64,000 nt of DNA from Aeromicrobium yanjiei (GTDB lineage Bacteria; Actinomycetota; Actinomycetes; Propionibacteriales; Nocardioidaceae). The DNA is taken from positions 1,612,001 through 1,676,000 of the forward strand of contig NZ_CP045737.1 in NCBI RefSeq assembly GCF_009649075.1, read 5' to 3'. The position numbers and the translations under genes were made by a program. The notes beneath the pieces are model-generated. The model searched no databases and was not told the DNA's origin. It saw nothing but the letters and a program-made list of their open reading frames with translations. Shown one piece after another: positions 49,468 through 64,000 of this stretch (position 1 is its first letter; each line of letters opens with the position of its first letter).

Positions 49468-49657
49468 TCCCGTCTCGTGACGTGCGGACTAGGCGATTAT
49501 CACCTACGCGAGCCGCCTCCCGCTGCGATTTCGCCGCAAGAGGGGGCGGGCAGCCGCCGACGACACCGAGGTTTTCACCGATGCGACAGCGTGTCCACCT
49601 GGGCGAATCTGATGACACAGCACCGGGACCCGCCGGTGCGCAGGCAAGGAGCCCACC

Positions 49658-50539
49658 ATGTCCGACGATCACGTCATCGAGGTCGACCGTCTCAGCGTCG
49701 CCTATGGCGACTTCGCCGCCGTCCGCGACCTGTCCTTCCACGTGAAGCGGGGTGAGCTCTACGCGTTGCTCGGATCGAACGGAGCCGGCAAGACGTCCAC
49801 CCTGGAGGTCGTCGAAGGTCACCGCCCGGTCACATCGGGCGCGGTGCGGGTGTTCGGGGAGAGCCCGCAGAACCGGAGCGCGGTACGTCCGCGCATGGGA
49901 ATGATGCTGCAGGAGAGCGGCTTCGCTCGCGATCTGACGGTCCGGGACTCCGTCGGTCTGATCGGCGCGCTGAGCGGAAGGCACGACGACCTCGACCGGG
50001 TGCTCGGGATGGCTGGGCTGACTCGCAAGCGGGACACCCGTGTCTCCCAGCTCTCCGGCGGCGAGAAGCGTCGCCTGGACTTCGCCACTGCCGTGTTCGG
50101 GGCGCCGGAGCTCATCATCCTGGACGAGCCCACGGCAGGCCTGGACATCCAGTCCCGGGATGCGCTCTGGGCCGCCGTGGACCAGCTTCGTGACAAGGGA
50201 TCCACGGTCGTCCTGACCACCCACTACCTGGAGGAGGCGCAGCAGCGCGCCGACCGCGTCGGGCTCATGCACCGAGGCACCCTCCGGCGAGAGGGCACCG
50301 TCGAGGAGCTCACACAAACCCTGCCGTCGAAGATCAGCTTCGCGCTGGCTCCGGGTGACCCCGAACCGCCGGTCCTCGGTGCCCGCAACGGTGCCTTCCA
50401 CGTCGAGACCTTCGACCTGCAGGGTGACCTCCACCGGCTCCTGGACTGGGCGCAGCGGGCCGGCGTGGAGCTGCAGCAGCTGGAAGCCGGACCCACCCGT
50501 CTCGACGACGTCTTCCGCACCCTCGACGCCGCCGCCTGA
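49658..50539 (+). CDS. ABC-2 exporter ATP-binding protein
   Basis: A 293-residue ATPase: Walker A GSNGAGKTST, signature LSGGEKRRLDFA, Walker B LIILDEPTAGLD, switch His in TTHYLEEAQQRADRV. C-terminal ~80 residues are of the DrrA type. AAGGAG lies about 6 nt before the ATG. It forms an exporter with the permease encoded 38 bases downstream. The divergent LAL regulator may control it. Confidence 0.93.
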   Translation: MSDDHVIEVDRLSVAYGDFAAVRDLSFHVKRGELYALLGSNGAGKTSTLEVVEGHRPVTSGAVRVFGESPQNRSAVRPRMGMMLQESGFARDLTVRDSVGLIGALSGRHDDLDRVLGMAGLTRKRDTRVSQLSGGEKRRLDFATAVFGAPELIILDEPTAGLDIQSRDALWAAVDQLRDKGSTVVLTTHYLEEAQQRADRVGLMHRGTLRREGTVEELTQTLPSKISFALAPGDPEPPVLGARNGAFHVETFDLQGDLHRLLDWAQRAGVELQQLEAGPTRLDDVFRTLDAAA

Positions 50540-50577
50540 GCACTCCGACCCACCCCGTGCCACGAAGGAGCTCCGCC

Positions 50578-51293
50578 ATGATCGAGATTGCCCGTACCGA
50601 ACTGATCCAGATCTTCCGCAACAGGCTGGTCCTGGTGACCGGACTGATCATCCCGGTCGCCTTCAGCGTGTACGTCGTCCACCAGCGCGAGACGTTCCTC
50701 GACCTGGGAAGCCTCGGCTACGTCGCGGCGATCATGATGTTCGTCGTGATGGCCCTCGGGCTCTACACCACGGCGGTGACCACGCTGGCCTCCCGCCGGC
50801 AGGACCTCTTCCTCAAGCGGCTGCGGTCCACCGCTGCGAGTGACGTGAACATCCTGGCCGGGCTCCTCGCCCCGCTGACGGTCGTGGCCCTCCTGCAGGT
50901 CGGCGCGATGCTGGCCGTGCTCGGCGTGGTCGCCACCAGCCCGGTCCACACCTGGCTGCTCGTGGTGGCCGTCCTGGCCACCACGTCGATGATGGTCGCT
51001 CTTGCGCTGGCCACCGCGGGGCTCACGAATTCGCCCGAGCACGCCCAGGTGACCACGCTGCCGGTCACTCTCGCGGTGATTGCGGTAGCGAGCTGGGTCG
51101 GGATCACCGGTACGGAGAACCTCGCCCAGCTCAAACGACTGCTGCCGGGAGGGTCGGCCACCGAGCTGGTCGTCAATGCATGGGAGGGCGGTGTCCCTCT
51201 CGACCAGTCCCTGTTGCTCCTGATCCCGACCGTGGGCTGGGTCGCTGCCGCCGTCGCGCTGGCCACGCGGTTCTTCCAGTGGGAGCCACGCCG

Positions 51294-51297
<4 letters not shown>
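50578..51297 (+). CDS. ABC-2 exporter permease
   Basis: A 239-residue permease with about six TM helices (LVLVTGLIIPVAFSVYVV first, GWVAAAVALATRFF last). A conserved TTLASRRQDLFLKRLRST loop matches ABC-2 drug/antibiotic exporters. AAGGAG precedes the ATG. Its stop overlaps the kinase gene by ATGA (51294-51297), a tight link between exporter and kinase. Substrate unknown. Confidence 0.9.
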
Positions 51298-53147
<1,850 letters not shown>

Positions 53148-53181
53148 CCGCCTCAACCACCACTACCAGGAGGACGCACAC

Positions 53182-53424
53182 ATGACAGCCATCCAGGTTC
53201 TCCCGGACCCGTCCCGCCTGCGCTACCAGGCGAGCATCGACGGTGAGGTCGCAGGCTTTGTCGAGTACATCGTGACCGATGAGCTGATCGTCTTCACGCA
53301 CACCGAGGTCCACCCACGGTTCGAGGGCAAGGGCGTCGGCTCGGCGATCGCCCGGTTCGCGCTGGACGACGTCCGTGTCACCTCGTGTACGGCGTCCCTG
53401 ATCCGGCGAAGGAAAAGTAGATGA
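53182..53424 (+). pseudogene. truncated GNAT-type N-acetyltransferase
   Basis: The 80-residue frame starts as a normal small GNAT of the YjdJ/OAT type (VAGFVEYIVTDELIVFTHTEVHPRFEGKGVGSAIARFALDD at 53255-53372), with a GKGVGS acetyl-CoA loop. The expected C-terminal strand (RGLxVxPLCPF) is replaced by VTSCTASLIRRRKSR. In another frame over the same bases is VYGVPDPAKEK and a stop, which looks like the tail of an unrelated protein. A deletion junction near 53375 is a good explanation. AGGAGG precedes the ATG; the stop overlaps the next GNAT gene (ATGA). Confidence 0.6.
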
Positions 53425-53813
53425 TCACGACACTCAAGGACAAGCGCGGTGCGACCATGACGGTCGAGCTGGAGATCGACACCCCGGTCAGCTCGTACAC
53501 GGTGAGCCCGGAGGGCGAACCGGCTGTGGGACGTGCCGACTTCATCGATTCCCCCGGGACCAGCCATGACCGGATCTTCTTCCACACCGAGGTGGACGAC
53601 GAGTTCAGTGGACGAGGCCTGGCGGGGTTGCTGGTCCGGGCGGCGCTCGACGACAGCATCCGCAGCAAGGTCACCGTCGTGCCGGTGTGTCCGGTCTTCG
53701 CGCGGCACCTGAGGACGCACGGCAGCGAGTTCACCGCGAGAGGCGGAGTGTTCCGCAGACCGACCCCTGCCGACATCGCCGCGGTCACCCGGGCTGCACG
53801 AGGCGAAGCATGA
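53421..53813 (+). CDS. GNAT family N-acetyltransferase (small type)
   Basis: A 130-residue full-length member of the same family as its truncated neighbour: IFFHTEVDDEFSGRGLAGLLVRAALDD has the acetyl-CoA loop, and VTVVPVCPVFARHLRTH the C-terminal strand missing from the neighbour. An internal ATG at 53457 (MTVELEI) could be the true start. Substrate unknown. 13 nt before the glutaminase gene and co-directional. Confidence 0.85.
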   Translation: MITTLKDKRGATMTVELEIDTPVSSYTVSPEGEPAVGRADFIDSPGTSHDRIFFHTEVDDEFSGRGLAGLLVRAALDDSIRSKVTVVPVCPVFARHLRTHGSEFTARGGVFRRPTPADIAAVTRAARGEA

Positions 53814-53826
53814 CGGAGGAGGCCCG

Positions 53827-55104
53827 ATGCGACCCATCATTCCCGACTACCTGACCGATGCGCTCGCTGATGTCGAGTCGGACGTCTCGGGAGAGCTGGC
53901 GGCATACATACCCGAGCTCGCGGGAGCAGACCCTGATCGCCTCGGTGCCGTCTTCGCCACTCTGGACGGCACGATCTACGGCGCCGGCGACATCGACCAC
54001 GAGTTCACGATCCAATCGATCTCCAAACCGTTCACGTACGCGCTTGCGCTGGCTGATCGCGGTTTCCATCCGGTGCTCGACAAGGTCGGCGTCGAGCCGT
54101 CGGGGGAGGCCTTCAACCAGATCTCCCTCGAACGTGGGAGTGGGCGCCCGCTCAATCCGATGATCAACGCCGGCGCGATCACCGCGCACTCCTTGGCCGG
54201 CCCGCCAGGGCTGGATCCGGCAGGGCGGGTCGAGCGAGTGATCGACGGCTTGTCCGCGTTCGCCGGCCGACGGCTGGCGATCGACGAGGCGGTGTGCGCG
54301 TCCGAGATGAGGCACGCGCACCGCAACCTTGCCATCGCGCACATGCTCCGCAGCTACGACATCCTCACCGAGGACCCCACGGCCGTCGTCGAGGGCTACG
54401 TCCGGCAGTGCTCCGTGCTCGTCACGGTGCGGGACCTGGCCGTCATGGCCGCGACGCTTGCCAACGGCGGGGTGAATCCGCTCTCGGGTGAGCAGGTGGT
54501 CCATCGACCGGTCGTGCGTCAGGTGCTCAGCGTCATGGCCACCTGCGGAATGTACGACGCCGCAGGGGACTGGGCGACACACGTCGGCATCCCGGCGAAG
54601 AGCGGCGTGGCTGGCGGGCTCATCGGCGCATTGCCCGGACAGATCGGCATCGCCACGTTCTCACCACGGCTGGACGCGCATGGCAACAGCGTGCGGGGGG
54701 TGTCCTTGTTCGAACAGTTCTCGTCCGATGCGGGCCTGCACGTGATGGAGGTGCCGGAGTCTGCGCCCTCGGTCGTGCGATCGAACCGCGTCGATGGCGA
54801 CCGATCGGATGCCGTCCGGGTGATCCAGCTGCAAGGGGGAATCCGCTTCGCCGGCGCCGAACGAATCGTCCGTGAAGCTGCTGGCGTGTTCCCCGAGACC
54901 AGGGTGGCTCTGGATCTCACCATGGTCTACTCGATCGACGACGTGGCACGACGCATGCTGCTCGAGGTCACGCGTCGGCTCACCCTGGACGGCCACGACG
55001 TCTACCTGGTGGACCCGGAATCGATCGTGCCGGATCCCGATCCCGGCGATGGCGGCCGAGTCACCGTCGTCGAAGACCTTCACCACGTGCCTCTCGCCCT
55101 CTAG
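53827..55104 (+). CDS. glsA: glutaminase A with C-terminal STAS domain
   Basis: A 425-residue protein. The serine-dependent glutaminase domain (residues 1-300) has the SxxK pair in FTIQSISKPF (Ser64, Lys67), INAGAI and KSGVAGGLIG. The C-terminal ~100 residues (VRVIQLQGGIRFAGAERIVRE ... RVALDLTMVYSIDDVARRMLLE) form a STAS domain, as in glutaminases fused to anti-sigma-antagonist modules. It makes glutamate and ammonia from glutamine and may be regulated by STAS interactions. Shine-Dalgarno GGAGG lies before the ATG. Confidence 0.93.
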   Translation: MRPIIPDYLTDALADVESDVSGELAAYIPELAGADPDRLGAVFATLDGTIYGAGDIDHEFTIQSISKPFTYALALADRGFHPVLDKVGVEPSGEAFNQISLERGSGRPLNPMINAGAITAHSLAGPPGLDPAGRVERVIDGLSAFAGRRLAIDEAVCASEMRHAHRNLAIAHMLRSYDILTEDPTAVVEGYVRQCSVLVTVRDLAVMAATLANGGVNPLSGEQVVHRPVVRQVLSVMATCGMYDAAGDWATHVGIPAKSGVAGGLIGALPGQIGIATFSPRLDAHGNSVRGVSLFEQFSSDAGLHVMEVPESAPSVVRSNRVDGDRSDAVRVIQLQGGIRFAGAERIVREAAGVFPETRVALDLTMVYSIDDVARRMLLEVTRRLTLDGHDVYLVDPESIVPDPDPGDGGRVTVVEDLHHVPLAL

Positions 55105-55171
55105 AAGTCTCCGTCGTGTCGCTGAAGCCGTCTTGCCCCAGCTCGCCGTCCTCAAGTGGGACGATGGCGAC

Positions 55172-56173
55172 GTGACGAACTCCTCGCGCCCGACGATCTA
55201 CGACGTGGCGGCTCGTGCTGGGGTGTCCAAGTCCTTGGTCTCGTTGGTCCTGCGCGAGCCCGGCACCGTGAGTGAACGCCGGCGGCGCGCGGTCCTGGAG
55301 GCGATCGACGAGCTCGGGTACCGACCGAGCTCGGCGGCCGCGTCGCTGGCGGGGACACGCACCAGGACGATCGGCATGGTCGTGGAGGACTTCGCCAACC
55401 TGTGGTTCGTCGATCTGCTGCAGGGCCTGCGCGAAGTGCTGAAGCCTGAAGGGCTGCAGGTGTTGATGGGGGACAGGCAGATGACGATGTCCCCCGGTCG
55501 CGACGCGATCGACGCGTTCGTGTCGATGCGCGTGGAGGGGCTGGTGCTCGCCCTGGATCCGCCGGACGTGCTGACCGGACTGCACGGGATCCCCGCCGTC
55601 GTCGCCGGCGAGCGTGGACGGCATCCTCGCGGTGTTGCCAAGGTGGCCAACGACGATCGCTCGGGGGCGAGGCTCGCCACCAGGCACCTCATCGAGCTCG
55701 GGCACACCCGCATCGCGCACGTCACCGGCGAAGGGGGCGCGGCGCAGGTCCGGCGCGAGGCGTACGAGGCCACGATGACCGAAGCGGGTCTCGAGCCAGT
55801 GGTCGTCGGGCACGGCAACCCCACCAACGACGAGGCCGCGACCGTGGCGACGCGCGAGCTGCTCGCCGCACGCCGCGACGTGACCGCGATCTTCGCCGCC
55901 AACGACGCGATGGGGCTGGGGTGCATGGGTGCTCTGCGCGAGGTGGGTCTGTCGGTGCCGGACGACGTCTCGATCGTGGGGTACGACAACTCGCTGATCG
56001 CCCAGGCCGCGTACCTCGACATGACCACGGTCGACGACCGGAGCCTGGACGTCGGACGTGAGACCGCCCGGGTTCTCCTCGACCGGATCGGGGGAGCCAC
56101 GACGGAGGCGTCCACGCTGCTGCTCACCCCGTCGCTGATCGTGCGGTCGACGACTCGTCCAGCCGCCAGGTAG
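55172..56173 (+). CDS. LacI family transcriptional regulator
   Basis: A 333-residue LacI: the HTH TIYDVAARAGVSKSLVSLVL is at residues 8-27, with the hinge helix following (YRPSSAAASLAGTRT), and a sugar-binding-like ligand domain (IGMVVEDFANLWFVDLL; IFAANDAMGLGCMGALRE; PDDVSIVGYDNSLIAQ). GTG 55172 has GACGAT six bases upstream, suggesting a leaderless start. A perfect LacI-type palindrome lies at 56224-56235 between it and the sugar-binding protein/P450 genes, which it most likely represses. Confidence 0.95.
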   Translation: MTNSSRPTIYDVAARAGVSKSLVSLVLREPGTVSERRRRAVLEAIDELGYRPSSAAASLAGTRTRTIGMVVEDFANLWFVDLLQGLREVLKPEGLQVLMGDRQMTMSPGRDAIDAFVSMRVEGLVLALDPPDVLTGLHGIPAVVAGERGRHPRGVAKVANDDRSGARLATRHLIELGHTRIAHVTGEGGAAQVRREAYEATMTEAGLEPVVVGHGNPTNDEAATVATRELLAARRDVTAIFAANDAMGLGCMGALREVGLSVPDDVSIVGYDNSLIAQAAYLDMTTVDDRSLDVGRETARVLLDRIGGATTEASTLLLTPSLIVRSTTRPAAR

Positions 56174-56193
56174 CAGCTCTCACTTGGCAGGGG

Positions 56194-56235
56194 TTGACGT
56201 GTCCTGCATCACAGCGTACGTTTTGGAGCGCTCCA
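56194..56235 (+). promoter_or_regulatory. promoter with overlapping LacI-type operator
   Basis: TTGACG (56194-56199), a 17-base spacer and TACGTT (56217-56222) make a good promoter. The perfect palindrome TGGAGCGCTCCA, with the central CG typical of LacI-family sites, lies at 56224-56235 and covers the expected transcription start. The LacI gene upstream is the obvious regulator of the downstream lipoprotein-P450-NHL genes. Confidence 0.72.
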
Positions 56236-56302
56236 GAGTTGCGCCGAATGTCTAGACAAAGGTCGGACCGGGATCGGCAGGCTCACTGACTAGAGACGAG
56301 TG

Positions 56303-57268
56303 ATGATGAAGAAGATCGCGATGATCGGTGCAGTCGCCGCAGGGATGCTGGCGGTGACCGCGTGCAGCGGCACCGGCAAGAGCGAGGGCCCCGCCAACTC
56401 CAAGGACCTCGACCTGACCTACGCAGTCGTGACGCACGCGCCGCCCGGCGACGCGTTCTGGGACCGGGTCAAGTCCGGCGCCGAGCGGGCCGCGGACGAC
56501 TACGGGCTCACGATGACGTACTCCGGTGACCCGGATCCTGCCGAGCAGTCCAACCTCATCGACAGCGCCGTCGCGGACGGGGTCGACGGGCTCGTGGTCT
56601 CGATGGCCAACCCCGACGGCGTCAAGAGCAGCGTCGAGAAGGCTGTCGCGGCGGGCATCCCCGTGGTGACCGTGAACGCCGGGCAGGACCAGTCGAGAGC
56701 CTTCGGAGCCATCACCCACGTGGGACAGTCCGAGACCCTCGCGGGCGAGGCGGTCGGCGCTCGGATGAAGAAGGACGGCTTCTCGAACGCCGTCTGCGTC
56801 ATCCAGGTCGCAGGTGCCGTCAACCTCGAGGAGCGGTGCGCCGCTGCCAAGGGCGCGATGGGCGGCACGATGAAGAACCTCCAGGTCGACGGCACGGACG
56901 ACAGCCAGGTCACCACGACGATCACCACGCGGCTGCAGAGCGACAAGAACATCGACGTCATCCTCACGCTCGGCGGCCAGCAGGCCATCGACGCCGTGGC
57001 AGCGGTCAAGGACGCAGGCAGTGACGCGAAGGTCGTCACGTTCGACCTGTCCGAGGACGTCCTGGCGGGCATCGAGGCCGGCGAGATCCAGTGGGCTGTC
57101 GACCAGCAGCCGTTCGTGCAGGGGTTCGAGGGCATCTCGGTCCTGTATCTCAAGAGCGTCAACGGCAATGACCTCGGTGGCGGCCAGCCGATCTACTCCG
57201 GGCCCGCCTTCGTCGACTCCTCGAACGCCAAGGCCATCGCGAAGTACGCCGCCAACGGCACCCGATAG
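56303..57268 (+). CDS. sugar-type ABC substrate-binding lipoprotein
   Basis: A 321-residue periplasmic-binding-protein-like lipoprotein. Signal peptide with lipobox LAVTAC (Cys about residue 20). Then LDLTYAVVTHAPPGDAFWDRVKSGAERAADDYG and DGLVVSMANPDGVKSSVEKAVAAGIPVVTVNAG (56409-56685), matching the RbsB/XylF fold of sugar-binding proteins. No ABC ATPase or permease gene is nearby. Two ATGs at 56303 and 56306 follow a GTG. It could feed a shared transporter or sense the LacI ligand or P450 substrate. Confidence 0.92.
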   Translation: MMKKIAMIGAVAAGMLAVTACSGTGKSEGPANSKDLDLTYAVVTHAPPGDAFWDRVKSGAERAADDYGLTMTYSGDPDPAEQSNLIDSAVADGVDGLVVSMANPDGVKSSVEKAVAAGIPVVTVNAGQDQSRAFGAITHVGQSETLAGEAVGARMKKDGFSNAVCVIQVAGAVNLEERCAAAKGAMGGTMKNLQVDGTDDSQVTTTITTRLQSDKNIDVILTLGGQQAIDAVAAVKDAGSDAKVVTFDLSEDVLAGIEAGEIQWAVDQQPFVQGFEGISVLYLKSVNGNDLGGGQPIYSGPAFVDSSNAKAIAKYAANGTR

Positions 57269-57317
57269 ACCGGCGCGCACCCGCGACCTCGACGCCACCA
57301 GAGAAGGAGAACGACCG

Positions 57318-59525
57318 GTGACCACGCAGCAGGACGTCTCGAGCGTCGTCTACGACCCGTTCAGTGTCGCGTTCCAGGAAGACCCGTTCCCGGTCTACGA
57401 ACGCCTGCGGGAGGACGCCCCCGTCTACCGCAGCGAGAAGTGGGGCTTCTGGGCACTGTCGCGGTACGACGACGTCCGCGCCGCGCTGCTGGATCCGGAG
57501 ACGTTCAAGAACCATCCGGGCATCGACCTCGACGCGACGAACGACCAGGGCGGCGAGGGCAACATCCCCAACCTGGACAACCCACGCCACGACGAGATCC
57601 GCAACGTGGTCCAGCGACTGTTCATGCCGCGCAGCATCGCCCGGCTCGAGGACGCCGTCCGGCGCATCACCCGCCGGACGGTTGACGGCTTCGCCCATCG
57701 CGGGACGGCCGATCTGGCTCAGGAGCTGTCGTGGCCACTGCCCTACGAGGTGTTCTTCGACTTCCTCGGTCTGCCCGACGGAGACGACCGTGAACAGCTC
57801 ATCACCTGGTCCCACGGTTTGAAGGACCGGGTCCCGGACGACGACACACTCACGCCGTTGGCCATCCACTCCACCGTCAGCTCACGCGAGTACATCGCCG
57901 ACCTGCTCATGCAACGCCGCGTCCATCCGAGGAACGACCTGCTGACCCACGTCGTGCAGGCGGAGATCAACGGGATCCCGCTCGCCGAGCCGGAGATCGA
58001 GCAGGCCTCAGAGATCGTCGGACTGGTGTTCGGCCTGTACCTCGCCGGCATCGAGACCACCGCGGGCTTGCTGTCGACACTGTTCCAGGAGCTCGCTGCG
58101 CGCCCCGACCAGCAACGCGCCCTGCGCGAGGACCCGAGCCTGATCCGCAACGCGGTCGAGGAAGGGCTCCGGTTCCGGACGCCGTTGCAGCTGACGGTGC
58201 GGACCGCGACCCGCGACGTCGAGCTGCACGGCGTGACCATCCCGGCCGGTGACCGCGTGGCGATGGTGATCGGCGCCGCCAACCACGACCCGCGGCAGTA
58301 CGAGCGCGCGGGCGAGTTCGACGCACTGCGACCCAACGTCCGCCACCTCGGCTTCGGCGAGGGCCTGCACGGATGCCTGGGCAACCCGCTCGCACGGCTG
58401 GAAGCGCGAGTCGCGCTGGAGGAGGTGCTGCCCCGCCTGGGGGAGTACCGCATCTCCGGCCGGGTCGAGCGCTACCCGTCCACGCCCAACATGGCGGTGC
58501 TCGACCATCTCGACATCGAGTTCGACCCGGCGCACGCCTCCGCGGCGCAGTCGTCCGTGCCGAGCGCGGATCATCGGCACGCTCCGACCTCCCTGCCGAT
58601 GGTGGTCGAGGAGCGGGTCGAGGTCTCCGACCAGGTGGTGGCCCTGACCCTGACGTCGAGGGACGGCTCGGACCTGCCGCCATGGCAACCCGGCGCGCAC
58701 GTCGACCTCGTCCTCGGGGACGGCCTGGTGCGGCAGTACTCGCTCAGCGGGGATCCGGCCGATCGCTCCTGCTACCGCGTCGGGATCCTCCACGAGCCCG
58801 ACGGGCGCGGAGGCTCGACGTTCGTGCACACCAGTCTGCGTGACGGCAGCCGGGTGGAGGTCCGCGGGCCGCGCAACCACTTCGCGCTCGAGGAGTCGCC
58901 GCAGTACGTCTTCATCGCCGGCGGCATCGGCATCACGCCCATCCTGCCGATGGTCGCCCAGGCCGAGGCCGCGGGCGCGGACTGGACACTCGTGTACGGC
59001 GGGCGGACCCGGGCGACCATGGCCTTCCTGGACGAGCTCGCTGCGTACGGCGACCGGGTCGTCCTGTGGCCCCAGGACGAGCGTGGCCACATCGATCTGG
59101 ACTCGCTGCTGGGTGAACCGCGCGCCGACACCCTCGTGTACGTGTGTGGGCCCTCCCCGTTGCTGGACGCCGTCGAGGAGCGCTGCCGGGCGTGGCCGGA
59201 GAACGCCCTGCACCTGGAGCGGTTCGCTGCCAAGCCCGTGGGTGCTCCCGCGCTGGACGAACCGTTCGAGGTCGAGCTGTCACGGTCCGGACGAGTGCTC
59301 AGCGTCCCCACGGACCGCAGCGTCGTGGAGGTGCTGGACGACGCGGGCGTCGTCGTGCTGACCTCGTGCGGTGAAGGGACGTGCGGGACCTGCGAGACGC
59401 AGGTGCTGGACGGCGTGCCGGACCACCGCGACTCCGTCCTGACGCCGGCGGAGCAGCGGCGCAACGACTGCATGATGGTCTGCGTCTCCCGCTCCTGCTC
59501 GCCACGACTGGTCCTGGACCTGTGA
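57318..59525 (+). CDS. self-sufficient cytochrome P450 fused to a phthalate-dioxygenase-type reductase (CYP116B-like)
   Basis: A 735-residue three-part enzyme. P450 domain (1-400): I helix AGIETTAG, ExxR in EEGLRFR, heme loop FGEGLHGCLGNPLAR with ligand Cys353. Reductase (about 420-640): FMN site RQYSLSG, NAD(P) site GGIGITPILPM. C-terminal plant-type [2Fe-2S] ferredoxin: CGEGTCGTC at about 684-692 and the last ligand Cys in NDCMMVC. This matches the CYP116B layout (P450RhF). It hydroxylates or demethylates a substrate using NAD(P)H without other partners. GAAGGAG precedes GTG 57318. Located after the binding lipoprotein, under the LacI operator. Confidence 0.95.
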   Translation: MTTQQDVSSVVYDPFSVAFQEDPFPVYERLREDAPVYRSEKWGFWALSRYDDVRAALLDPETFKNHPGIDLDATNDQGGEGNIPNLDNPRHDEIRNVVQRLFMPRSIARLEDAVRRITRRTVDGFAHRGTADLAQELSWPLPYEVFFDFLGLPDGDDREQLITWSHGLKDRVPDDDTLTPLAIHSTVSSREYIADLLMQRRVHPRNDLLTHVVQAEINGIPLAEPEIEQASEIVGLVFGLYLAGIETTAGLLSTLFQELAARPDQQRALREDPSLIRNAVEEGLRFRTPLQLTVRTATRDVELHGVTIPAGDRVAMVIGAANHDPRQYERAGEFDALRPNVRHLGFGEGLHGCLGNPLARLEARVALEEVLPRLGEYRISGRVERYPSTPNMAVLDHLDIEFDPAHASAAQSSVPSADHRHAPTSLPMVVEERVEVSDQVVALTLTSRDGSDLPPWQPGAHVDLVLGDGLVRQYSLSGDPADRSCYRVGILHEPDGRGGSTFVHTSLRDGSRVEVRGPRNHFALEESPQYVFIAGGIGITPILPMVAQAEAAGADWTLVYGGRTRATMAFLDELAAYGDRVVLWPQDERGHIDLDSLLGEPRADTLVYVCGPSPLLDAVEERCRAWPENALHLERFAAKPVGAPALDEPFEVELSRSGRVLSVPTDRSVVEVLDDAGVVVLTSCGEGTCGTCETQVLDGVPDHRDSVLTPAEQRRNDCMMVCVSRSCSPRLVLDL

Positions 59526-60517
59526 AGGTCTCCATCGGCGCCGGGGAACGTGAATGGACTGAGCTGTTCCCTCGGGGCACCTCGAGCCCTGCGTGGATGC
59601 ACTCCGGGATCGCGGTGACCGACAGCGGCGAGGTGGTCGTGGCTTCACCCGAGGGGGACGCGATGGTCTTCCTCGATCGTGACGGCGCGGAGCTGCGCCG
59701 GGTGGCGACACCCACCACGGACCTGCACGGCATCGTGCGCGACGTCATCGACGGCCGCGACGTCTTCTGGCTCGTCGACCACGGCCACAAGTACGTCCCG
59801 GCCAGCCCGGCGTACGTCGACCACCGGGTGCAGGGGCGACTCGTTGCCGTGACTCCCGACGGAGACGTCGTCCACGAGCTTCACGCACCTGCCCACCCGG
59901 CGTACGCGCACACGGGCTGGAGCCCGACGGCCCTCGCGGTCGAGGGCGAGGACGGACGGATCTGGGTCGCCGACGGATACGGCGCTTCCCTGGTCCACGC
60001 CTACGCCCCGGACGGGTCCTGGCTGATGACCGTCGACGGAGCCGACTCCGGCACGGCCTTCGACTGTCCGCACGGCATCGTCGTGGACCAGCGCGGCCCT
60101 GAGCCGGTCCTTGTCGTGGCGGACCGGGCCAACCAGCGACTCGTCGAGCTGGGGCTCGACGGACGCACCCGCAGGGTGCTCGCCGCCGACCAGGTCTGGA
60201 GCCCATCGGGGCTCGCGATCGACGACGACCTGCTGCTGGTCACCGAGCTGTGGGGTGACCTGGTGGTGCTCGACCGCGACGGCGCGGTCGTCGACCGGGT
60301 CGCCGAACAGCCCGCGGAGCCCGAGCGTCCCGGTTGGCCCAACGCGATGGCCGACGGAGCCATGGTCCGGCCCGACGTGCGTCCCGGAGCGCTCAACAGC
60401 CCCCACGGCGTCGCAGTCGACCCGACGGATCGCTCCTGGGTGCTCACCGAGTGGTTCATCGGAGGTCGCGTCGTGCGCCTCTCGCCTCGAAGGACAGGTG
60501 CCGGCGGAACAGGTTGA
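59522..60517 (+). CDS. NHL/SMP-30-like beta-propeller protein
   Basis: A 331-residue protein made of repeated strand blocks: SGIAVTDSGEVVVASPEGD, ALAVEGEDGRIWVADGYGASLVHAYAPDG, HGIVVDQRG...LVVADRANQRLVEL, SGLAIDDDLLLVTELWGDLVVLD and HGVAVDPTDRSWVLTEW (59610-60453), the form of a six-bladed NHL or SMP-30/gluconolactonase propeller. No signal peptide. GTG overlaps the P450 stop (GTGA), so it works on the same pathway, perhaps as a hydrolase (lactonase) of the P450 product. Confidence 0.88.
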   Translation: MKVSIGAGEREWTELFPRGTSSPAWMHSGIAVTDSGEVVVASPEGDAMVFLDRDGAELRRVATPTTDLHGIVRDVIDGRDVFWLVDHGHKYVPASPAYVDHRVQGRLVAVTPDGDVVHELHAPAHPAYAHTGWSPTALAVEGEDGRIWVADGYGASLVHAYAPDGSWLMTVDGADSGTAFDCPHGIVVDQRGPEPVLVVADRANQRLVELGLDGRTRRVLAADQVWSPSGLAIDDDLLLVTELWGDLVVLDRDGAVVDRVAEQPAEPERPGWPNAMADGAMVRPDVRPGALNSPHGVAVDPTDRSWVLTEWFIGGRVVRLSPRRTGAGGTG

Positions 60518-60545
60518 CCCACGCTCGGCGTGGTGAGGCGGCGAC

Positions 60546-60551
60546 TAGTCT
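60546..60551 (+). promoter_or_regulatory. -10 element of the MarR gene
   Basis: TAGTCT followed by six bases (TCGAAC) and the ATG at 60558; leaderless start. Confidence 0.45.
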
Positions 60552-60557
60552 TCGAAC

Positions 60558-60977
60558 ATGTCCGAGCCGCCGCCGTTCAGCCCGACCATCGCACTCCTGA
60601 CGGTGGCGCGGGTGTGGGACGCTGCGCTTGCCGACGAGCTCAAGGCGTTGGGACTCACGAGCCGCAAGTACGGCCTTCTCGGACACATTCGCGGCACGCC
60701 GGGCATCTCGTTCAGCGAGCTCGCGCGCCGGTCCCGGATCACGGTGCAGAGCGTCCACACGGCCGTGGCGGGGTTCGTGCAGAACGGTCTCGTCGACGAC
60801 GACACCGCCCACGCCGGGTCCGCGTCGGCCCTGCGGGTGACCGCTGAGGGCGAGGCGCTGCTGGCGCAGGCAGCGAAGGTCGTCGACGACATCGACGGCC
60901 GGTTCGCCGATCAGCACCCCGGTCTGGTCGACGCCTTGCGGGCGCACATGGCGGAGGTGTTCGCCGCACGTCCATAA
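60558..60977 (+). CDS. MarR family transcriptional regulator
   Basis: A 139-residue MarR: LADELKALGLTSRKYGLLGHIRGTPGISFSELARRSRITVQSVHTAVAGFVQNGLV holds the winged HTH (60627-60794), with a wing at ASALRVTAEGEALL. A perfect 27-base palindrome (11-base arms) overlaps its stop codon and the start of the next gene, so it most likely represses the downstream membrane protein pair. Confidence 0.92.
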   Translation: MSEPPPFSPTIALLTVARVWDAALADELKALGLTSRKYGLLGHIRGTPGISFSELARRSRITVQSVHTAVAGFVQNGLVDDDTAHAGSASALRVTAEGEALLAQAAKVVDDIDGRFADQHPGLVDALRAHMAEVFAARP

Positions 60978-61000
60978 CCTTCAGGTAGGCTGAAGGTTAT
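60974..61000. promoter_or_regulatory. MarR-type palindromic operator with embedded -10
   Basis: ATAACCTTCAG (60974-60984) and CTGAAGGTTAT (60990-61000) are perfectly complementary around a 5-base spacer. TAGGCT (60986-60991) inside it lies seven bases before the ATG at 60999, so the operator covers the -10 of a leaderless transcript. The upstream MarR gene is the likely binder. Confidence 0.75.
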
Positions 61001-61451
61001 GGAATCGTTCTTGCTGTCCGTGCACGTGGTGGCGGGCATCCTCTTCGTCGGCCCTGTGGCCGTCGCGGCCAGTCTCTTTCCGCGGTATGCCCCCACGGCC
61101 GATGCTCCGGCGGGTCGCCCCGCGATCAGGGACGCGGGCACGGCGCGCGTGCTGCACCGCATCACCCGCAGCTACGCCGCGATGGCGCTCATCGTGCCGG
61201 TCGTCGGACTTGTCCTGGCCATGGTTCAGGGCCGGACGACCGAGGTGTGGGTCGTGGTGGCGATGGTGCTGACTGCTGTCGCGGGAGGCCTGCTCGCGCT
61301 GCAGGTCGTCCCGGCACAGTCCTCCGCCCTCGATCGTCCTGATGACGGCTCCCAGCTGCGGCGGCTCAGCATGATGGCCGGCGTCTTCAACCTGCTGTGG
61401 GTCGCGGTGGTCGTGCTCATGATCGTGCGACCCGGATCGGTGCAGGTGTGA
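60999..61451 (+). CDS. small integral membrane protein (DUF2269-like)
   Basis: A 150-residue protein with four TM helices (about 3-25, 55-75, 85-105, 122-145). FLLSVHVVAGILFVGPVAVAASLFPRY and the central VLHRITRSYAAMALIVPVVGL resemble the DUF2269-type four-helix membrane proteins. Function unknown. Its ATG lies in the MarR operator, and it overlaps the next gene (GTGA), so the pair is MarR-controlled. Confidence 0.75.
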   Translation: MESFLLSVHVVAGILFVGPVAVAASLFPRYAPTADAPAGRPAIRDAGTARVLHRITRSYAAMALIVPVVGLVLAMVQGRTTEVWVVVAMVLTAVAGGLLALQVVPAQSSALDRPDDGSQLRRLSMMAGVFNLLWVAVVVLMIVRPGSVQV

Positions 61452-61738
61452 GACCGCTGCTGCGGACGCTGAGCGTCCTGTCGGTCCTCGAGCTGATCAG
61501 TGTCGTGGTCCTGCTCGGGAACGCGGTGACGGTGCACGACCGGGCGGTCACGAGCGCGCTCGGGCCGATCCACGGCGCCCTGTACCTCGCAGTGGCCGTC
61601 ACCGCCCTGCTCGGACGTGGCCTCGGCACCAGGACGCGCGTTCTCGCGCTGATCCCGTTGCTGAGTGGTCCCCTCACGATGCGCCAGGTGTGGCGAGAGG
61701 CACAGGCGGTCCCGTCGGAGAACACCACATCTGGGTAG
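61448..61738 (+). CDS. small membrane protein (DUF3817-like)
   Basis: A 96-residue protein with three hydrophobic segments (LRTLSVLSVLELISVVVLLGNAVTV, GALYLAVAVTALLG, VLALIPLLSGPLTM), similar to the DUF3817 family of small membrane proteins by its LRxLxxxxxxELxSxxxLL start. GTG overlaps the upstream stop. Function unknown. Confidence 0.7.
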   Translation: MRPLLRTLSVLSVLELISVVVLLGNAVTVHDRAVTSALGPIHGALYLAVAVTALLGRGLGTRTRVLALIPLLSGPLTMRQVWREAQAVPSENTTSG

Positions 61739-61766
61739 TTACAAGACTGTTGTTTCCAGATAGAGT
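61739..61766 (+). promoter_or_regulatory. promoter of the riboswitch-nrdA transcript
   Basis: TTACAA (61739-61744), 16 bases, TAGAGT (61761-61766); transcription would start near 61773, right at the 5' side of the cobalamin aptamer. No NrdR box pair was recognised. Confidence 0.45.
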
Positions 61767-61772
61767 GGTCGA

Positions 61773-61982
61773 CGCAGCTGGTTCGGCTCCTCAGCCAGGG
61801 GAGTCGTGGCAACAGGGAACCCGGTGTGAATCCGGGACTGCCCCGCAGCGGTAAGTGGGAACGACCTTCGTCATCAAGCACTTGGCCCTCCAGACAACTC
61901 TGTGGCCTGGGAAGCGACGAACAGTAGGCGGCGGTGCTCCGGCACCTCCTGGCCCATGAGTCCGAAGACCTGCCAGTGCCGC
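61773..61982 (+). ncRNA. cobalamin (B12) riboswitch
   Basis: The B12-box core AACAGGGAACCCGGTGTGAA (61811-61830) followed by TCCGGGACTGCCCCGCAGCG (61831-61850) is characteristic, and the 3' part GTCCGAAGACCTGCC (61960-61974) matches the conserved end of the aptamer. A P1 stem can form between GCAGCTGG (about 61774-61781) and CCAG at 61973. It would turn nrdA off when adenosylcobalamin is available, as known for class Ia genes of streptomycetes where B12-dependent NrdJ then takes over. Confidence 0.9.
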
Positions 61983-62093
61983 ACCGTCCAGACGACGGTG
62001 TGGGTCCGCGACCTCGTGGGAAGGTCAGGGGATCTGGGTCGCTGTGTCGTCCCGTCTCCGTCACCCCTGAGCTCGGATTGCGTCCACGCACCA

Positions 62094-62110
62094 GTTCACG
62101 AGGGGTGAAC
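62094..62110 (+). promoter_or_regulatory. Shine-Dalgarno-sequestering hairpin
   Basis: GTTCAC (62094-62099) pairs with GTGAAC (62105-62110), holding GAGGG of the ribosome-binding site in its loop, 3 nt before the ATG. It is a plausible translational part of the riboswitch expression platform. Confidence 0.5.
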
Positions 62111-62113
62111 CGC

Positions 62114-64000
62114 ATGACCATCACTGTCATCAAGCGCGACGGAACGCGCGCACCGTACGACGGCTACGAGATCGCCAGGTCCATCGAGGAGGCGAGCGCC
62201 GGGCTCGACGACCAGGTCGCCCGCGTCACGCAGCTGCAGTCCGAGCTCGAGATCACGCTGTTCGACGGCATCACGAGCGAAGAGCTCGACGAAGCCGTCG
62301 TGCAGGTCGCCCTGCAGAACGTCAAGGACGACCCGGCCTTCGACACGATCGCCTCACGGCTGCTGGTCAAGACCCTCTACAAGAAGGTCTTCGGCGAGGG
62401 CGTCACCCGCGACGAGGTCTACGCCTTCCACGGCCCGGCGTTCGTCGCCTCAGTCCTGAGGGGCGTCGAGCTGCAGCTGCTCGACCCACGCCTGGCCGAG
62501 CTGTTCGACCTCGAGGTGCTGGGCGCCGCGCTCGACCCCGACCGCGACGACCTCGTCCGCTACATCGGCGCGCAGACCATGCGTACCCGCTACATGATCT
62601 GCGAGCCCGACGGGACGCCGCTGGAGGTGCCGCAGTTCTTCTGGATGCGGGTCGCGATGGGCCTGTCGCTCAACGAGGACGATCCGACCTCTGCTGCCGT
62701 CGGGTTCTACGACAAGATGTCGCGCCTCGAGTACCTGGCGGCCGGCTCGACGCTGGTCAACGCCGGGACGGCGTACAGCCAGCTCTCCAACTGCTTCGTG
62801 ATGCAGATGGAGGACGACATCGAGCACATCGCCAAGAGCGTCCGCGACGTCATGTGGCTGACCAAGGGCACCGGTGGCATCGGCATGTCGGTCAGCAAGC
62901 TGCGGGCCGAGGGATCGCCCATCCGCAGCAACAACACCGCCTCGACCGGTCCCATCCCGTTCATGCACACGATCGACTCGACGCTGCGCGCCATCAGCCG
63001 CGGGGGCAAGAAGTTCGGCGCGTTGTGCTTCTACATGGAGAACTGGCACCTCGACTTCGCCCAGTTTCTCGACCTGCGTGCCAACTCCGGCGACCCGTAC
63101 CGACGCACCCGCACCGCCAACACCGCGGTGTGGATCAGCGACGACTTCATGAAGCGCGTGCAGGACGACCAGGACTGGTACCTGTTCGACCCGCTCGACG
63201 TTCCCGACCTCGTCGAGCTGTACGGCGCGGCCTTCTCGGCCCGCTACGCCGAGTACGCCGCGATGGCCGACGCGGGACAGCTGCGGCACAAGAAGATGCG
63301 CGCCCGTGAGCAGTTTCGCGCGATTATGGTCTCGCTGCAGGCCAGCTCGCACCCGTGGCTGACGTGGAAGGACACCATCAACACGCGGGCGCTGAACCAC
63401 AACACCGGCACGATCCACCTGTCCAACCTGTGCACCGAGATCACGCTGCCGCAGGACCGCGACAACGTCGCCGTCTGCAACCTCGCCTCGATCAACCTGT
63501 CCCGTCACGTCACCGGGCGCCGCCAGCAGGCCCGCGTCGACTGGAAGCGGCTGGCAGAGTCGACCCGCCTGGCCGTCCGTCAGCTCGACAACCTCATCGA
63601 CATCACGATCTCGTCGGTGCCCGAGTCGGAGCACTCCAACGAGCTCAACCGCGCCCTCGGCCTCGGCGTCATGGGCTTCACGGACGTCGTCGAGCGCTTC
63701 GGCTACTCCTACGAGTCCGAGCAGTCGTACGAGCTGATCGACCAGGTGATGGAGTTCATCAGCTGGCACGCGATCGACGCGTCGGCCGACCTGGGCCGCG
63801 AGCGCGGCGCCTACCCGAACTTCGAGGGATCGCGCTGGAGCCAGGGCATGGTGCCGATCGACTCCCTCGACCTGCTGGAGGCCGACCGCGGCGTGCGGGT
63901 CGACGTCGACCGCACCACGCGCCTCGACTGGGACGCTCTGCGTGGCAAGGTCCAGGCGGGCATCCGCAACTCCACCCTGATGGCGATCGCGCCGACCGCG
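62114..64000 (+). CDS. nrdA: class Ia ribonucleoside-diphosphate reductase alpha subunit, partial (3' end off window)
   Basis: 629 residues are visible. An N-terminal ATP-cone (MTITVIKRDGTRAPYDGYEI ... LVKTLYKKVF) is followed by the reductase barrel: first redox Cys in SQLSNCFVMQ, KGTGGIGMSVSKLR, the thiyl-radical site SNLCTEITL (Asn, Cys, Glu), CNLASINLS (second Cys) and LGVMGFTDVV. The stop and C-terminal redox Cys pair lie outside. It reduces NDPs with an NrdB diiron partner, expected downstream. Control by a B12 riboswitch fits an actinobacterium that also has B12-dependent NrdJ (not in window). AGGGG precedes the ATG. Confidence 0.95.
   Translation, partial: MTITVIKRDGTRAPYDGYEIARSIEEASAGLDDQVARVTQLQSELEITLFDGITSEELDEAVVQVALQNVKDDPAFDTIASRLLVKTLYKKVFGEGVTRDEVYAFHGPAFVASVLRGVELQLLDPRLAELFDLEVLGAALDPDRDDLVRYIGAQTMRTRYMICEPDGTPLEVPQFFWMRVAMGLSLNEDDPTSAAVGFYDKMSRLEYLAAGSTLVNAGTAYSQLSNCFVMQMEDDIEHIAKSVRDVMWLTKGTGGIGMSVSKLRAEGSPIRSNNTASTGPIPFMHTIDSTLRAISRGGKKFGALCFYMENWHLDFAQFLDLRANSGDPYRRTRTANTAVWISDDFMKRVQDDQDWYLFDPLDVPDLVELYGAAFSARYAEYAAMADAGQLRHKKMRAREQFRAIMVSLQASSHPWLTWKDTINTRALNHNTGTIHLSNLCTEITLPQDRDNVAVCNLASINLSRHVTGRRQQARVDWKRLAESTRLAVRQLDNLIDITISSVPESEHSNELNRALGLGVMGFTDVVERFGYSYESEQSYELIDQVMEFISWHAIDASADLGRERGAYPNFEGSRWSQGMVPIDSLDLLEADRGVRVDVDRTTRLDWDALRGKVQAGIRNSTLMAIAPTA

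What the first reader, a model, noticed from the sequence alone, without database searches (positions are those of the whole stretch)
55172..60517. LacI-controlled cluster of a sugar-binding lipoprotein, a self-sufficient P450 and a propeller lactonase-like protein
A perfect LacI-type palindrome (56224-56235) overlaps the start site of a strong-looking promoter. Downstream genes are a binding lipoprotein with no transporter, a CYP116B-like P450-reductase fusion and an overlapping NHL/SMP-30-like gene. This suggests an inducible pathway in which the ligand is bound, hydroxylated or O-demethylated, and the product ring-opened; candidates are aromatic glycosides, phenolic ethers or sugar-like molecules. 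I know of no such three-gene pathway.
Basis: partly seen in the sequence, partly recalled or inferred. Interest (0 to 1): 0.66.

Follow-up and report, generated by a model that had tools for sequence, protein, structure and literature searches.

The report
O-methyl-inositol demethylation gene cluster
A bacterium, probably an actinobacterium, carries a switchable set of genes that probably takes up methylated inositols, common plant sugar-alcohols, and strips off the methyl group with a self-sufficient P450 enzyme, helped by a propeller protein whose relatives often sit beside P450s or a formaldehyde-removing enzyme.

Summary
The palindrome occurs once in the 3.68 Mb genome and recurs exactly, twice, in a second genome: before the P450 and between LacI and the binding protein. 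A LacI regulon is therefore very likely. Comparative evidence points to inositol. The binding protein has a 64% identical paralogue in the genome's own iol cluster. Four of seven orthologous P450s lie 5-15 kb from iolD, and all seven genomes have iolD (159 of 393 class genomes do). LacI lies within the fetched locus of 7 of 7 orthologues and 0 of 23 reductase-only controls. Best reading: P450 O-demethylation of an O-methyl-cyclitol feeding the iol pathway. No substrate was tested. The NHL propeller does not look like a canonical lactonase; it keeps the Tyr/Arg pair of peptidyl-hydroxyglycine lyase (PAL), though generic NHL domains score higher than PAL. NHL genes lie near P450s in 9 of 19 loci read and beside formaldehyde dehydrogenase in 6. 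It may cleave the hydroxymethyl-ether product. The P450 shares CYP116B's layout, but its heme domain is only 31-32% identical to two such proteins.

The parts
55172..56173 (+). LacI-family repressor (333 aa, GTG start)
   Evidence: Pfam LacI and Peripla_BP_3; 56% identical to the LacI beside the L024 P450, with the same SKSLVSLVL stretch
56194..56222 (+). possible promoter, TTGACG-17-TACGTT, read by eye
   Evidence: sequence; not found by the consensus scan
56224..56235 (.). operator-like perfect palindrome TGGAGCGCTCCA
   Evidence: single copy in the genome; two exact copies in L024, before the P450 and between LacI and SBP
56303..57268 (+). cyclitol-type substrate-binding lipoprotein (321 aa, lipobox-like TACSG by eye)
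   Evidence: Peripla_BP_4; best NCBIfam hit rhizopine SBP NF052284, 182 bits, cut-off 420; 64% identical to the SBP of the genome's iol cluster; best PDB hit 4ru1
57318..59525 (+). P450 fused to a PDR-type reductase and a 2Fe-2S domain (735 aa); candidate O-methyl-cyclitol demethylase
   Evidence: Pfam p450, NAD_binding_1, Fer2; full-length match to 6kbh and 6laa; clade of 8
59522..60517 (+). NHL six-bladed propeller (331 aa), PAL-like; candidate hydroxymethyl-ether lyase or accessory protein
   Evidence: Pfam NHL; model pLDDT 87.3; PAL 3fvz Z 27.6; PAL profile E 1e-9; Y153 and R202 invariant in 18 of 18 rows
53827..55104 (+). glutaminase, left border of the cluster
   Evidence: NF002134 above cut-off; in same-genus genome G029 the next genes are a 5'-truncated NHL remnant and fdhA

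Best explanation
A LacI-controlled catabolic cassette for an O-methylated cyclitol. The lipoprotein captures an O-methyl-inositol (pinitol, ononitol, sequoyitol, bornesitol, or a rhizopine-like amino-cyclitol) and probably hands it to the permease of the genome's inositol ABC transporter. The fused P450 hydroxylates the methoxy carbon with NAD(P)H and O2, giving a hydroxymethyl ether that breaks down to formaldehyde and the free inositol. The NHL propeller acts on that demethylation step. The inositol enters the genome's iol pathway. The ligand releases LacI from TGGAGCGCTCCA. Shown: genes, palindrome conservation in one second genome, inositol linkage of the P450 orthologues, and linkage of NHL relatives to P450s and fdhA. 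Inferred: the substrate, the demethylation, the shared permease, the NHL role and the repressor's ligand.
For: Palindrome. LacI in the fetched locus of 7 of 7 full-length P450 orthologues and SBP in 6 of 7; 0 of 23 reductase-only loci have either. iolD over cut-off in 7 of 7 such genomes and in the window's genome, against 159 of 393 class genomes. Same contig and 5-15 kb apart in L021, L022, L023, L025. In L021 and L022 the P450 directly follows an IolG-like dehydrogenase and a TIM-barrel isomerase that match (432-503 bits) a pair in the window genome's own iol region. SBP relatives. That iol cluster has IolB, IolC, IolD and an MMSDH/IolA above cut-off; its IolE is below (162 against 290 bits). 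P450 O-demethylation of a methyl sugar has a precedent (PMC10033563, abstract).
Against: No ligand or activity was tested. iolD is common in the class (40%), and the seven genomes are not corrected for kinship. In the window's genome the cluster lies about 650 kb from iolD, and in L024, L026 and L047 iolD is on another contig. A P450 in an inositol cluster could hydroxylate rather than demethylate. Only 3 of 8 P450 genomes have the NHL gene (window, and 2 of 7). The window shows no fdhA. The SBP is far below the rhizopine cut-off, and the iol paralogue scores no lower on it (201 bits). The ligand of 4ru1 (myo-inositol) is recalled; the tools cut its title. One orthologue (L047) has genes that read like aromatic-acid breakdown on one flank.
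Confidence: 0.6

Rival explanations
1. Same inositol setting, but the P450 hydroxylates or oxidises a cyclitol or amino-cyclitol without demethylating it (for example an aminocyclitol antibiotic fragment or an unusual inositol isomer).
For: The linkage to iol genes does not by itself name the reaction; SBP relatives include the rhizopine type.
Against: NHL genes lie beside fdhA in 6 of 19 loci read and near P450s in 9 of 19, which points to formaldehyde release, although the window itself has no fdhA and 5 of 7 other P450 genomes have no NHL.
Confidence: 0.2
2. The cluster handles an O-methyl sugar or methyl glycoside (such as a methyl-hexose) rather than a cyclitol; the NHL-P450 pair serves methyl sugars generally.
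For: NHL lies with an alpha-N-acetylglucosaminidase (Pfam-scanned in L100 and on an Embleya plasmid, L105) and, by eye, with a sugar-type ABC binding protein in L100-L102 and L105. Methyl-galactose demethylation by a P450 is known (PMC10033563, abstract).
Against: The SBP, and the neighbours of the orthologous P450s, are inositol-type.
Confidence: 0.1
3. One reading: P450 on an aromatic or phenolic ether, product ring-opened by a lactonase-type propeller.
For: The propeller fold is as close to lactonase RPA3624 (Z 27.2) as to PAL (Z 27.6). The domain layout is that of CYP116B. In L047, genes from about 11.8 kb to the end of the locus read by eye like aromatic-acid breakdown (FAD monooxygenase-like, fumarylacetoacetate-hydrolase-like, not scanned).
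Against: Such genes were noticed beside only this one of the 7 orthologues, whereas LacI, SBP and inositol-type genes recur. SGL is below its cut-off. The rest of the window (1-49000) was not annotated here.
Confidence: 0.07

Closest known systems
P450 demethylation of 6-O-methyl-D-galactose in porphyran-using marine Flavobacteriia (PMC10033563, abstract and outline seen)
   Same: P450 oxidative O-demethylation of a methoxy carbohydrate to formaldehyde and the free sugar, with an auxiliary protein encoded nearby and needed for growth
   Different: There the P450 works with redox partners and the auxiliary enzyme is an alcohol dehydrogenase; here the P450 is self-sufficient, the setting is inositol, and the partner is an NHL propeller
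Rhizopine catabolism, moc genes of rhizobia (passages of PMC6668481 and PMC10107442 seen)
   Same: a distantly related binding protein (MocB type); a methyl-cyclitol substrate; inducible uptake and breakdown
   Different: MocR-type regulator and mocDEF instead of LacI and a P450; mocDEF as a demethylation system is recalled, not read
CYP116B self-sufficient P450s (6kbh, 6laa; the CYP names are recalled)
   Same: P450, PDR-type reductase and 2Fe-2S domain in one chain
   Different: heme domain 31-32% identical to the two plasmid-encoded proteins taken as CYP116B; fused in 5 and split in 3 of the 8 members
PAL, the lyase half of peptidylglycine alpha-amidating monooxygenase (3fvz)
   Same: six-bladed propeller; Tyr/Arg dyad aligned; conserved histidines; works after an oxygenase on a hydroxylated product
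   Different: 17% identity over the fold; generic NHL domains match better by sequence and fold; lyase activity untested

Membership tests
LacI repressor with cognate operator | LacI HTH and sugar-binding domains | tested here: met
   Pfam, both above cut-off
LacI repressor with cognate operator | conserved palindrome at the promoters of regulon genes | tested here: met
   one copy in own genome, two exact copies in L024; other orthologues have other palindromes
LacI repressor with cognate operator | binding and release by ligand | not testable with these tools
   needs EMSA or a reporter
CYP116B | P450-reductase-ferredoxin single chain | tested here: met
CYP116B | heme domain above 40% (family) or 55% (subfamily) identity; rule recalled | tested here: not met
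   31-32% to L121 and L122; that these two are CYP116B is recalled
SMP-30/gluconolactonase | SGL profile above cut-off | tested here: not met
   24.4 against 26.3 bits; none in the PDB profile list
PAL-type lyase | six-bladed propeller with Tyr/Arg catalytic dyad | tested here: met
   3fvz Z 27.6; Y153 to rat 654 and R202 to rat 706, from the ends of alignments not printed residue by residue; dyad human Tyr651/Arg703 in PMC10303134
PAL-type lyase | closest by sequence to PAL rather than to other NHL proteins | tested here: not met
   designed and TRIM-type NHL domains score 1e-22 to 1e-13, PAL 1e-9; they may gain from repeated domains
PAL-type lyase | cleaves a hydroxylated oxygenase product | not testable with these tools
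   enzyme assay needed
Rhizopine (MocB) binding protein | NF052284 score of 420 or more | tested here: not met
   182 bits

The most novel reading that the evidence does not exclude
The NHL propeller is a new class of lyase: a PAL-like enzyme that breaks the hydroxymethyl ether (hemiacetal) made by an O-demethylating oxygenase, releasing formaldehyde in a controlled way, often to an adjacent formaldehyde dehydrogenase. P450 O-demethylation would then be a two-enzyme reaction in these bacteria, as peptide amidation is with PHM and PAL.
Probability: 0.33. Interest if true: 0.85.

Novelty: new variant of a known kind. Interest (0 to 1): 0.64.

Why it matters
Methyl-inositols such as pinitol are abundant in legumes and conifers (recalled). 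The rows listed by ten full-text searches (several lists were capped, and the library lacks most subscription journals) show no bacterial P450 demethylating one. The cluster names a candidate enzyme, transporter part and switch that can be tested together. The NHL link to P450s and formaldehyde dehydrogenase would, if confirmed, change the view that hydroxymethyl ethers in O-demethylation simply fall apart, and would give a function to a protein that Pfam names only by its NHL repeats.

Tried and rejected
Lactonase role for NHL: rejected as best reading on profile evidence, though the fold is equally close to a lactonase (Z 27.2 against 27.6). The best fold matches are NHL domains of Thin and TRIM proteins (Z up to 29.5). 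CYP116B membership: rejected. Rhizopine SBP membership: rejected on cut-off, kept as nearest kin. Literature for PAL residues by number gave one irrelevant paper; the dyad came from PMC10303134. The 4ru1 ligand could not be read because titles were cut. A classic LacI motif TGWAANCGNTTNCA has no match in the genome. SBP tree: grouping not resolved. The plasmid search for NHL gave one Embleya record; that for the P450 gave 122 records, of which 6 neighbourhoods were fetched and used as outgroups. Four small genomes (1.3-1.8 Mb; L097-L099, L103) have the NHL gene with no P450, fdhA or inositol gene found nearby, and 5 of 7 other P450 genomes lack NHL: both count against a general P450-NHL dependence. 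In one search most controls had weak IolA matches (about 160-215 bits), read as generic aldehyde dehydrogenases. Permease stretches L078-L084 were fetched to look for a partner of the orphan SBP but served only as controls; that question stays open. That generic NHL domains outscore PAL was added, and the novel case fell from 0.35 to 0.33.

Full report
WHAT IS THERE. Four genes read in one direction: LacI (55172-56173), a binding lipoprotein (56303-57268), a P450-reductase-ferredoxin fusion (57318-59525) and an NHL propeller (59522-60517) that overlaps the P450 by four bases. Between LacI and the lipoprotein lies TGGAGCGCTCCA (56224-56235), just after a by-eye -10 hexamer; the consensus promoter scan found nothing. 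The window outside about 49000-64000 was not annotated here.

THE OPERATOR. The palindrome occurs once in the 3.68 Mb genome. In L024 (Nocardioidaceae; P450 80% identical in the best segment, residues 8-735 matched) the gene order differs, yet the exact palindrome occurs twice in 20 kb, before the P450 and between LacI and the binding protein, with none in 100 shuffles. The two LacI proteins are 56% identical and share the DNA-reading stretch. Other orthologues have more distant LacI proteins and other palindromes near the P450 or its operon (L021, L022, L023 and L025 perfect; L026 and L047 imperfect, by eye). Perfect palindromes of 12 bp or more are common in these loci (9-21 per locus), so only the L024 result is strong.

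THE SETTING IS INOSITOL. A pattern scan of the genome collection with the P450 gave 30 loci, 7 of them full-length orthologues: L021, L022, L023, L024, L025, L026, L047. The other 23 match only the reductase part and serve as controls. With one script and threshold, LacI lies in 7 of 7 orthologue loci and 0 of 23 controls, and a binding protein of this type in 6 of 7 against 0 of 23 (some other queries came from L026 and match it trivially, but the LacI and SBP queries came from the window's genome). iolD is over its cut-off in 7 of 7 of these genomes and in the window's, against 159 of 393 genomes drawn from the class; kinship was not corrected for. It is on the P450's own contig in four, at about 11.6 kb (L021), 15 kb (L022), 4.9 kb (L023) and 11.9 kb (L025), by matching contig lengths and positions; in L024, L026 and L047 it is on another contig. 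In L021 and L022 the P450 directly follows an IolG-like dehydrogenase and a TIM-barrel isomerase; the matching pair in the window's genome sits in its iol region without a P450 (the dehydrogenase is below the IolG cut-off, 270 against 355 bits). The P450 itself is rare: 1 of 393 class genomes, the window's own, at E 1e-90.

THE BINDING PROTEIN. Its best NCBIfam model is the rhizopine binding protein (182 bits, below the 420 cut-off); the iol-cluster paralogue gives the same model at 201 bits, so this marks cyclitol-type kinship, not rhizopine itself. The paralogue, 64% identical, lies with iolD and a permease about 650 kb away. L024's genome also has a second such protein in its iol cluster. 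The best solved relative is 4ru1 (46-47% identity, Z 37.6); I recall its ligand as myo-inositol, but the title was cut. An orphan binding protein sharing the iol permease is the simplest reading; it was not tested.

THE P450. In a 14-row tree eight P450 domains form one clade (100/99 support), 52-82% identical. They are 27-32% identical to two plasmid-encoded proteins that I take, from recall, as CYP116B (the window's own 31-32%), so the shared architecture is not membership. The reductase is fused in five (window, L021-L024) and a separate open frame in three (L025, L026, L047).

THE NHL PROTEIN. It was modelled well (pLDDT 87.3) as a six-bladed propeller. By fold the top rows are NHL domains of Thin and TRIM proteins (Z up to 29.5); among enzymes PAL (27.6) and lactonase RPA3624 (27.2) tie. 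By sequence profile, designed propellers and TRIM-type NHL domains score 1e-22 to 1e-13, and PAL, the only catalytic propeller recognised in the list, 1e-9. A 58-residue piece aligns with rat PAM over equal lengths, putting Y153 at residue 654; the end of the longer match puts R202 at 706. PMC10303134 (passages) gives human Tyr651 and Arg703 as the PAL dyad, the same spacing; that these equal rat 654 and 706 is inferred. Y153, R202, H184 and H295 are invariant in 18 of 18 rows, H27 in 16 of 16, H69 in 17 of 18 (one row is a truncated remnant). An Arg at this place is frequent in NHL repeats, so this is suggestive, not proof.

NHL NEIGHBOURS. Nineteen NHL loci were read: window, L023 (partial, weak match at a contig end), L026, L097-L103, L105, L136-L143. 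One further match (L128) was not read. P450 in the locus: 9 (window, L023, L026, L100, L101, L102, L139, L140, L141), of clearly different types: the fused kind, and kinds beside a separate FAD reductase. fdhA adjacent: 6 (L136-L140, L143); the four scanned score 729-745 bits for TIGR02819, cut-off 637, and all six score 713 bits or more against the L136 protein, itself among them. In L137 and L138 fdhA and NHL overlap by four bases. Two loci, L139 and L140, have both. One further locus has PhyH dioxygenases (L105), one inositol-type genes (L142), and in four none of these was found (L097, L098, L099, L103). Among 41 loci fetched for other reasons (662 kb) none had an fdhA match over 500 bits. 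In same-genus genome G029 (L136) the same kind of glutaminase is followed by a 5'-truncated NHL remnant and fdhA, as if LacI, SBP, P450 and the NHL start had been deleted from a cluster like this one; the window's copy lacks fdhA.

MECHANISM. Methoxy hydroxylation gives a hydroxymethyl ether, which releases formaldehyde. PAL does the analogous step in peptide amidation, cleaving the hydroxyglycine made by PHM. An NHL partner that recurs with different oxygenases and with formaldehyde dehydrogenase fits a lyase for that intermediate. Lesser roles (formaldehyde handling, a binding or scaffold role) are not excluded.

LITERATURE. Abstract and outline seen: PMC10033563. Passages seen: PMC6668481, PMC10107442, PMC10303134. 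Other papers were seen as search listings only. None of the rows listed by the ten searches is a P450 acting on an O-methyl-inositol; several lists were capped.

Noticed in passing
L077:4851-6804 (window's own genome); also L021, L022, L025: A PhyH-type dioxygenase and an SDR recur in these iol clusters, three of which also hold the P450; possibly a second oxygenase route for another cyclitol.
   Followed up: partly
L136:7765-8514: Same-genus genome G029 keeps glutaminase, a 5'-truncated NHL remnant and fdhA at the place where the window has the full cluster.
   Followed up: partly
L100-L102 and L105: NHL lies with an alpha-N-acetylglucosaminidase (Pfam-scanned in L100 and L105 only) and a sugar-type ABC binding protein by eye, with a P450 or PhyH dioxygenases: perhaps demethylation of an amino sugar.
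   Followed up: partly
L047:11773-20198: The right flank of the Rhodococcoides P450 locus reads by eye like aromatic-acid breakdown genes; not scanned against families.
   Followed up: no
L026:14169-15976 and L047:5723-7721: An aldo-keto reductase and a creatininase-like protein form a conserved pair beside the split P450.
   Followed up: no
L025, L026, L047 against window, L021-L024: The P450 and its reductase are separate open frames in three members of the clade and fused in five.
   Followed up: partly
L122:3184-7160: A self-sufficient P450 gene sits directly after a rifampin monooxygenase gene on a Rhodococcus ruber plasmid.
   Followed up: no
window 53827-55104: Glutaminase with a weak C-terminal STAS match.
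   Followed up: no
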